Assembly (NCBI GenBank): GCA_021787335.1
Contig: JAJYMC010000023.1
Span: 1-32,742 of the forward strand
Reading direction: 5' to 3'
Source of the DNA: Bacillota bacterium
GTDB lineage: Bacteria > Bacillota > Sulfobacillia > JAJYWN01 > JAJZPE01
DNA: 32,742 bases
Shown: positions 1,990-32,383 of the stretch, piece after piece
How positions within the stretch are numbered: position 1 is the stretch's first letter
How the letters are laid out: each line of letters begins with the position of its first letter
Position numbers and translations under genes: made by a program
Notes under the pieces: generated by a model
Database searches by the model: none
Told to the model about the DNA's origin: nothing
What the model saw: only the letters and a program-made list of their open reading frames with translations

Positions 1990-4860
<2,871 letters not shown>

Positions 4861-4909
4861 AGCCAACCCCCCAAGGGCAAAAAAATGTGGCCCGGACGGT
4901 TTTGTGTGT

Positions 4910-4990
4910 TTACCAGGGCCAGTTGATCCACGCCCCACCAGCCAAAGCCAACAGGGCCAGGGTCACGAGAGCGCGGAGGAGATTCTTCAC
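4910..4990 (-). CDS. 26-residue hydrophobic micropeptide
   Basis: GTG at 4990 opens a 26-codon frame ending 49 bases before the histidine kinase start. An unusually strong Shine-Dalgarno, AAAGGAGGGG (4996-5005), lies 5 bases upstream, which is the main reason to believe it is translated. The product starts VKNLLRALVTL, continues with a Leu/Ala-rich stretch that would form one membrane-spanning helix, and ends with three Trp residues (AWINWPW). I do not recognise the family. It may be a small membrane protein partnering the kinase, or a leader peptide whose translation affects kinase expression. Its position between the riboswitch/terminator and the kinase suggests co-transcription with the kinase. 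Confidence 0.55.
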   Translation of the reverse strand: MKNLLRALVTLALLALAGGAWINWPW

Positions 4991-5009
4991 GGTATCCCCT
5001 CCTTTCCTG

Positions 5010-5018
5010 ATTATACCA
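5010..5018 (-). promoter_or_regulatory. Extended -10 promoter element before the micropeptide
   Basis: The minus strand reads TGGTATAAT, a perfect extended -10 (TGnTATAAT). No good -35 is visible 17 bases further upstream. Transcription would begin near 5003-5004, at the start of the AAAGGAGGGG Shine-Dalgarno. If real, it gives a riboswitch-independent start for the micropeptide and kinase. Confidence 0.4.
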
Positions 5019-5034
5019 CGGACGACCCGCCTGC

Positions 5035-5083
5035 CGGGGCTGTTCTTCCCCGGGGCTCGTCCAATGGGCCGGCTTTCGCCGGC
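5035..5083 (-). other. Two hairpins in the leader between riboswitch terminator and micropeptide
   Basis: The 165 bases between the terminator and the micropeptide hold two hairpins. One is GCCGGC-GAAA-GCCGGC at 5068-5083 on the minus strand, a 6-bp stem closed by a GNRA tetraloop. The other is CCGGGG/CCCCGG at 5035-5054. Neither has a T-tract. No known riboswitch class was recognised here, and no other gene is seen. Confidence 0.4.
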
Positions 5084-5157
5084 TGCTCCCGCGCCCACAC
5101 GGATGAATCCCAGTTTTACCGTCCGGGCCTTGCTTATGGAGTTGTCAAAGTAGGGAC

Positions 5158-5189
5158 AAAAAGCCCACCGGCGGAATGCCCGGTGGGCT
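5158..5189 (-). terminator. Intrinsic terminator, probable expression platform of the cyclic-di-GMP riboswitch
   Basis: On the minus strand AGCCCACCGG (5189-5180) pairs perfectly with CCGGTGGGCT (5171-5162), 10 bp around an 8-base loop, followed by a TTTTT run and TG. It begins 16 bases after the riboswitch aptamer ends. The segment GGGTAGGCT just after the aptamer is partly complementary to the first terminator arm, which would allow a terminator/antiterminator switch. The pairing is by eye, and whether ligand turns expression on or off is not determined. Confidence 0.8.
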
Positions 5190-5204
5190 CGAAAGACTGG
5201 AGCC

Positions 5205-5300
5205 TACCCAGGGCGACCCGGCCATCCTAATGCCCGTTTTGGCGCATCTTAGACCCGTGGCTTTGCGTCCCCGGCTTTCGCCGGGTTTGCCTTTTTCCGT
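5205..5300 (-). ncRNA. Cyclic-di-GMP-I (GEMM) riboswitch aptamer
   Basis: The minus strand matches the GEMM-I consensus closely. In order it shows AAAAAGGCAAACC, a stem CCGGC closed by a GAAA tetraloop, GGGACGCAAAGCCACGGG, TCTAAG (tetraloop receptor side), a variable P2 hairpin GCGCCAAAACGGGC, then TTAGGATGGCCGGGTCGCC. These blocks line up one for one with the Vibrio cholerae Vc2 aptamer as known from the literature. An intrinsic terminator follows at once. Downstream on the same strand are the micropeptide and then the membrane histidine kinase with an HD-GYP-like domain, so these are the likely controlled genes. The upstream genes (tldD-tldE) end about 130 bases before it. Confidence 0.9.
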
Positions 5301-5431
5301 GGTGTGTGTGAACTTGGTCCTTTGCCTTGCCAAGGCGAAACTTCGACAGGCCCTCCCCAGTCCCTTCTAATATCTGCTATTATCTCCCAAATTTCTCGGG
5401 AAATGAGCTGAAGGCCAGCTAGAATGGCTGT
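5301..5431. other. AT-richer spacer between tldE and the riboswitch; no gene seen
   Basis: This stretch is clearly more AT-rich than its surroundings (around 5370-5400) and should hold the riboswitch promoter. On the minus strand GATAAT and TATTAG are possible -10 boxes, but I see no convincing -35 partner. The small palindrome GCCTTGGCAAGGC lies at 5327-5339. No clear terminator for tldE was found, so some readthrough into the riboswitch is possible. Confidence 0.3.
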
Positions 5432-32275: not shown

Positions 32276-32383
32276 GCTTGCCACCCGCTTACACCAAGAA
32301 TCCGCCGCCCGGAAGCCCTTGGAATTCATTCCGGGGAGGAAGGGCAGCGTTTCTTTTTTCCAGTTTTGTGGTATAATGGATCC
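32276..32383. other. Spacer between divergent moaC and tnpB-like gene
   Basis: Short region that must hold promoters for both genes. It is locally AT-rich (TTTCTTTTTTC at 32350-32360). A near-palindrome GGAATTCATTCC lies at 32324-32335. No clear moaC promoter was resolved. It should include the left end of the element that carries the tnpB-like gene, but I cannot define that end. Confidence 0.3.
32369..32377 (+). promoter_or_regulatory. Extended -10 promoter of the tnpB-like gene, possibly leaderless
   Basis: TGGTATAAT is a perfect extended -10. The ATG of the tnpB-like gene is at 32384, just 7 bases after the -10, so transcription would begin at or next to the A of ATG. There is no Shine-Dalgarno in the gap. 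Confidence 0.6.

What the first reader, a model, noticed from the sequence alone, without database searches (positions are those of the whole stretch)
4860..5300. Cyclic-di-GMP-I riboswitch with terminator upstream of a micropeptide and an HD-domain histidine kinase
The aptamer matches the GEMM-I consensus block for block and is followed by a 10-bp terminator with a T5 run. The controlled genes appear to be a 26-residue hydrophobic peptide and a membrane kinase carrying a degenerate HD-GYP-like domain. A cyclic-di-GMP sensor RNA controlling a kinase with a cyclic-di-GMP-phosphodiesterase-like fold suggests a feedback circuit linking cyclic-di-GMP to phosphorelay signalling. The riboswitch class is established knowledge; the circuit is inference.
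Basis: partly seen in the sequence, partly recalled or inferred. Interest (0 to 1): 0.75.

Follow-up and report, generated by a model that had tools for sequence, protein, structure and literature searches.

The report
c-di-GMP riboswitch before micropeptide-wrapping leader RNA
A standard RNA sensor for the bacterial messenger cyclic-di-GMP sits in front of a second, apparently undescribed RNA element that folds around a tiny 26-residue peptide gene and is shared by many bacteria just upstream of genes for cyclic-di-GMP-degrading enzymes, so the messenger's own control genes seem to be regulated in two RNA layers.

Summary
A c-di-GMP-I aptamer (5300-5208, minus strand; 78 bits against RF01051, 72 against RF03167) is followed by an 11-bp terminator, a 26-aa ORF and a membrane histidine kinase with a degenerate HD-GYP domain. 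The ligand-contact nucleotides G20/A47/C92 are canonical, so it is not the GGC variant despite that model's lower E-value. The arrangement recurs in both family relatives held. Four other aptamers in the genome precede fliF/fliG, a type IV pilin, a MASE9-GGDEF-HD-GYP protein and an actin-like protein.

The unexpected part lies downstream. The micropeptide belongs to a family found in 85 of 398 phylum genomes. In all 30 loci fetched from that search it lies directly upstream of a membrane HD-GYP gene. Its ORF is enclosed by a long-range helix whose arms covary (at least 9 bp in 71 of 75 loci). The 3' arm starts a median 13 nt after the stop codon and is U-tract-flanked in 24 of 71 loci. No Rfam 15 match was found.

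Best reading: a c-di-GMP OFF switch in tandem with a uORF-controlled attenuator, driving a pseudo-HD-GYP sensor kinase. A conserved extended -10 (TGGTATAAT) between terminator and ORF could bypass both. Nothing was tested at the bench.

The parts
5208..5300 (-). c-di-GMP-I riboswitch aptamer with canonical G20, A47, C92
   Evidence: Vc2 numbering from PMC3764141; conserved in G001 and G002
5182..5208 (-). candidate antiterminator (GGUAGGCUC/GAGCCCACC) overlapping the P1 3' strand and the terminator 5' arm
   Evidence: -14.1, -14.8 and -17.4 kcal/mol in window, G001 and G002; functional role inferred
5158..5190 (-). intrinsic terminator, 11 bp stem and T5
   Evidence: stem sequence replaced but structure kept in G002
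5118..5129 (-). 5' arm of the long-range helix enclosing the micropeptide ORF (GGCCCGGACGGU)
5010..5018 (-). extended -10 TGGTATAAT, candidate internal promoter
   Evidence: 0.01 expected by chance in the window; identical in G001 and G002
4998..5005 (-). ribosome binding site of the micropeptide (AAAGGAGG)
4910..4990 (-). 26-aa micropeptide ORF MKNLLRALVTLALLALAGGAWINWPW
4889..4900 (-). 3' arm of the long-range helix (ACCGUCCGGGCC), 9 nt after the stop codon
4879..4885 (-). T7 tract after the 3' arm (possible second, long-range terminator)
1990..4860 (-). membrane sensor histidine kinase with degenerate HD-GYP, GAF, PAS, HisKA, HATPase_c; 956 aa
5342..5348 (-). TGTCGAA, resembles a Spo0A box, upstream of the aptamer
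   Evidence: weak: 7 in the window against 3.0 expected; G002 has TGTCGAG

Best explanation
A two-layer leader mRNA drives an orphan pseudo-HD-GYP sensor kinase. Layer 1: c-di-GMP binds the class I aptamer and stabilises P1, whose 3' strand would otherwise start an antiterminator. The terminator then forms and the transcript stops (OFF switch). Without c-di-GMP, transcription continues. Layer 2: the transcript folds into a long-range helix around the micropeptide ORF, next to a U-tract here. A ribosome finishing the peptide (stop codon about 9 nt before the 3' arm) opens this helix, so downstream transcription or translation depends on peptide translation. Net result: kinase made when c-di-GMP is low and the micropeptide is translated. 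Shown: sequence, predicted structure, conservation and covariation. Inferred: ligand binding, sign of control, ribosome coupling, kinase output (perhaps Spo0A).
For: Aptamer significance with canonical G20, A47 and C92. Other aptamers precede fliF/fliG, a type IV pilin, a MASE9-GGDEF-HD-GYP protein and an actin-like protein. Antiterminator and terminator are conserved by structure in three genomes. The micropeptide profile hits 85 of 398 phylum genomes, 30 of 30 fetched loci lie directly upstream of HD-GYP genes, and it also occurs in Atribacteria MAGs. Closing helix matched score 33.8 against 21.8 (sd 4.1) for mismatched arms in 52 class loci; at least 9 bp in 71 of 75 loci. Stop-to-3'-arm distance median 13 nt, IQR 10-18; U-tract in 24 of 71 against 5.4% control. 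HD-GYP intact in homologs and in the own-genome paralog, lost in the window kinase.
Against: The conserved extended -10 at 5018-5010 could start a transcript that skips the aptamer and lacks the 5' arm. In the window family the U-tract is separated from the 3' arm by ACA. Two thirds of loci have no U-tract, so the second layer cannot be transcription termination everywhere. The peptide's strong conservation, including in other phyla, could instead mean that the peptide itself works in trans. Only three genomes carry the tandem arrangement.
Confidence: 0.5

Rival explanations
1. The micropeptide is a functional small membrane protein, a partner or regulator of the MASE9-type membrane domain of the HD-GYP protein or kinase. 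The surrounding helix only sets mRNA stability or translational coupling.
For: Peptide conserved across phyla with a charged N-terminus, a hydrophobic core LALLALVLAGGA and an aromatic tail; synonymous changes dominate; always next to a membrane HD-GYP gene in the loci fetched.
Against: The ORF is enclosed by the covarying helix in nearly all loci and the stop-to-arm distance is tight, which a trans-acting protein would not need. At 24-28 aa the chain would still be largely inside the ribosome tunnel at termination (general knowledge).
Confidence: 0.25
2. Micropeptide and kinase are transcribed mainly from the internal extended -10 promoter at 5018-5010. The riboswitch then makes only a short terminated RNA or a minor transcript.
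For: TGGTATAAT is expected 0.01 times in the window and a 22-nt block around it is identical in three genomes that differ elsewhere.
Against: Aptamer, terminator and 5' arm are also conserved and would be pointless for such a transcript. No -35 was found by the scan.
Confidence: 0.15
3. The aptamer is a c-di-GMP-I-GGC variant with altered ligand preference.
For: RF03167 gives the lower E-value.
Against: Position 47, G in the RF03167 consensus, is A in all five aptamers of the genome; RF01051 gives more bits; the regulon is typical of c-di-GMP.
Confidence: 0.05

Closest known systems
c-di-GMP-I (GEMM-I) riboswitch, RF01051
   Same: Aptamer fold, conserved P2/P3 blocks, G20/A47/C92, terminator expression platform
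   Different: Placed before a uORF leader and a pseudo-HD-GYP histidine kinase rather than directly before the regulated gene
c-di-GMP-I-GGC, RF03167
   Same: AAAGGCAAACC-type J1-2 and overall sequence; better E-value
   Different: A at position 47 where the family consensus has G
uORF / leader-peptide attenuators (e.g. TnaC-, ErmC- or ilvB-uORF-type; the uORF candidates of PMC8632094 and PMC11109978)
   Same: Short conserved peptide ORF inside a conserved RNA structure upstream of a main ORF, stop codon close to a regulatory stem, U-tract in a third of loci
   Different: A single long-range helix encloses the whole ORF; no run of one amino-acid codon; the downstream genes are HD-GYP c-di-GMP phosphodiesterase homologs; no HD-GYP-linked motif found in the main text of those two papers or in Rfam 15
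MASE9-HD-GYP phosphodiesterases
   Same: The kinase's membrane and HD regions are homologous to these
   Different: Window family lost metal ligands and gained GAF-PAS-HisKA-HATPase

Membership tests
c-di-GMP-I riboswitch (RF01051) | Covariance-model score above gathering cut-off | tested here: met
   78.2 bits against a cut-off of 35
c-di-GMP-I riboswitch (RF01051) | Ligand-contact nucleotides G20, A47, C92 | tested here: met
   Gap-free numbering from GGCAAACC to GCAAAGCC and J3-1 GC against the positions listed in PMC3764141
c-di-GMP-I riboswitch (RF01051) | Binds c-di-GMP and controls expression | not testable with these tools
   Needs in-line probing and transcription assays
c-di-GMP-I-GGC (RF03167) | Score above gathering cut-off | tested here: met
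   72 bits against 59
c-di-GMP-I-GGC (RF03167) | G at position 47 (my reading of the consensus and of the name) | tested here: not met
   A47 in the window and in the other four aptamers of the genome
HD-GYP phosphodiesterase | Metal-ligand set H...HD...H..HH..D and GYP motif | tested here: not met
   HDVAM, no HxxxG histidine, RHQGERFDGKGGP, AAEWFD in the window; intact in the homologs of A2
uORF/leader-peptide attenuator | Conserved ORF in a conserved RNA structure upstream of the main ORF | tested here: met
   translation itself not measured
uORF/leader-peptide attenuator | Translation of the ORF changes expression of the main ORF | not testable with these tools
   Needs reporter fusions
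Any Rfam 15 leader family for the micropeptide element | Match at gathering score, or by E-value | tested here: not met
   No gathering-score match in 40 related loci; no significant E-value match in the window region or two loci

The most novel reading that the evidence does not exclude
A previously undescribed, trans-phylum leader RNA family (a long-range helix closing around a conserved 24-28 aa ORF, with an AGCGGAG/UAGCG domain in most members) senses translation of its peptide, or a ligand, to set expression of membrane HD-GYP phosphodiesterases. In the window's family it has been placed under a c-di-GMP riboswitch and now drives a pseudo-HD-GYP kinase.
Probability: 0.5. Interest if true: 0.8.

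Novelty: new variant of a known kind. Interest (0 to 1): 0.63.

Why it matters
c-di-GMP turnover enzymes are many per cell and it is often unknown how their expression is set. A micropeptide and RNA structure conserved in front of membrane HD-GYP genes across the phylum, and in Atribacteria MAGs, would be a general, testable control point. The window family would add a direct c-di-GMP input and a phosphorelay output. In C. difficile c-di-GMP inhibits early sporulation by an unidentified route (PMC8653836); an orphan kinase switched off by c-di-GMP in a genome with Spo0A is one concrete model, though only by analogy here.

Tried and rejected
1) GGC variant: rejected because position 47 is A. 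2) MITE or repeat for the inverted repeat around the ORF: rejected, no second full-length copy in the genome, and the helix covaries in many lineages. 3) Aptamer as a general partner of the micropeptide/HD-GYP pair: rejected, none in 40 other loci. 4) Known Rfam family for the leader: none. 5) TRAP- or CsrA-like sites in the AGCGGAG repeats: considered from the sequences only, not pursued. 6) Plasmid-borne copies of the micropeptide: none found. 8) The first three-genome alignment used the wrong strand for G002; redone. 9) One Pfam call failed on a bad frame. 10) The two papers I took to be the source of RF03167 are not in the held library, so the meaning of 'GGC' is my reading of the model consensus.

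Full report
Observation. The minus strand of 5300-5208 matches the c-di-GMP-I clan: RF03167 (GGC variant) 72 bits, E 2.2e-15, and RF01051 78.2 bits. Using the conserved positions of the c-di-GMP riboswitch listed in PMC3764141, the window numbers without a gap from G20-G21-C22-A23 (GGCAAACC) through G32AAA35 and G42-A43-C44-G45 to A47-A48-A49, and J3-1 ends in C92. The RF03167 consensus has G at 47, so by its diagnostic base this is an ordinary c-di-GMP-I aptamer. The terminator 5190-5158 is real, though the generic scan missed it.

Conservation of the switch. The genome holds five aptamers. The other four precede a fliF/fliG operon, a type IV prepilin, an actin-like protein and an 818-aa MASE9-GAF-GGDEF-HD-GYP protein (fliF/fliG and prepilin named from their sequences). 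Most of these are typical c-di-GMP outputs and support c-di-GMP as ligand. The order aptamer-terminator-ORF-kinase is kept in G001 and G002. In G002 the terminator stem has a different sequence but the same form. In all three a candidate antiterminator overlaps the 3' strand of P1 and the terminator 5' arm. I read this as a c-di-GMP OFF switch (inference).

The kinase. Pfam finds HD_5, GAF, PAS, HisKA and HATPase_c. An alignment with 18 homologs from other genera shows that most carry the HD-GYP residues (HDVGK, HxxxG, HHERxDGxGYP, VADAFDAM). The window, G001 and G002 proteins read HDVAM or HDVAH, lack the HxxxG histidine, have RHQGE or RQMGE, and AEWFD or AERID. The next gene on the strand is a UvrD/PcrA-type helicase (named from its sequence), so no response regulator follows directly. 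Spo0A is present. A TGTCGAA site lies upstream of the aptamer in two of the three genomes, TGTCGAG in the third, but the motif is common in the window.

The micropeptide is a conserved family. A tblastn with the 26-aa peptide gave weak hits that repeatedly lay just upstream of homologs of the kinase's N-terminal half. With a profile, small ORFs of 24-32 aa were found at such sites in 52 class loci, including loci not used to build the profile. A phylum-wide profile search found it in 85 of 398 genomes. All 30 loci fetched from that search have an HD-GYP membrane protein directly downstream. It also lies upstream of such genes in Atribacteria MAGs and, more weakly, in an Actinobacteria MAG. Between the window and G002 the ORF shows 8 synonymous and 1 nonsynonymous codon changes.

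The RNA that encloses it. In the window, GGCCCGGACGGU (5129-5118) pairs with ACCGUCCGGGCC (4900-4889) across the ORF; the region folds with z = -4.5. The same kind of helix is found in other loci with arms of quite different sequence, for example CAAUAACCUGAACCAC/GUGGUUCAGGUUAUUG. Scoring each 5' flank against its own and against other loci's 3' flanks gave 33.8 against 21.8 (sd 4.1) in 52 class loci. In 75 loci, 71 have at least 9 bp and 80% exceed the 95th percentile of the mismatched pairs. The control is conservative, because it includes close relatives with the same arms. The 3' arm starts a median 13 nt after the stop codon (IQR 10-18). In 24 of 71 loci it is next to a U-tract, against 5.4% at control positions. 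The spacing fits a ribosome at the stop codon touching the 3' arm (inference). Most non-kinase members also carry AGCGGAG/AGCGAAG copies and a hairpin with a UAGCG loop before the RBS. The window family and other kinase-type loci mostly lack these. The own-genome paralog on C55 has the full non-kinase form, with an intact HD-GYP protein and no aptamer in its locus.

Is it known? No Rfam 15 family matches at gathering score in 40 related loci, and none by E-value in two loci. Full-text searches found no description; the main texts of two large open ncRNA screens that list uORF motifs hold no HD-GYP-linked one. The library lacks most subscription papers, so absence there is weak evidence.

Judgement. 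The riboswitch is a new member of a known class. Its position before a conserved uORF leader and a pseudo-HD-GYP kinase is a new arrangement. The leader itself looks like an undescribed, widespread regulatory element. The main open issues are the conserved extended -10 at 5018-5010 and whether the peptide acts in cis or in trans.

Noticed in passing
G000:C55:84677-86082 (L132, L199): Own-genome paralog pair: micropeptide MSKIIKAVVVLFALLLAGGAMFQFG with a full AGCGGAG/UAGCG leader and an intact membrane HD-GYP protein, no aptamer in the locus.
   Followed up: partly
L200, L209, L212 and other leaders: Tandem AGCGGAGCGG/AGCGAAGCGG copies upstream of the micropeptide RBS, two to several per leader; may be a protein or ligand site.
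   Followed up: partly
window 5342-5348 (-): TGTCGAA, a Spo0A-box-like site upstream of the aptamer, kept in G001 and with one change in G002; statistically weak.
   Followed up: partly
L129:2739-5192 (-), G000:C18:45739-45829: A c-di-GMP-I aptamer precedes a MASE9-GAF-GGDEF-HD-GYP protein, i.e. the riboswitch apparently controls an enzyme of its own ligand.
   Followed up: partly
L128, G000:C23:93134-93218, and G001:C33, G002:C35: A c-di-GMP-I aptamer precedes an actin-like (ALP/MreB-like) gene, conserved in three genomes.
   Followed up: partly
L112, L114, L127 and many other leaders: The gene upstream of the leader often ends in a conserved ...KATLDAxNRR... segment; conserved synteny, identity not determined.
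   Followed up: no
window 32369-32377 (+): A second TGGTATAAT in the window; 0.01 expected by chance.
   Followed up: no
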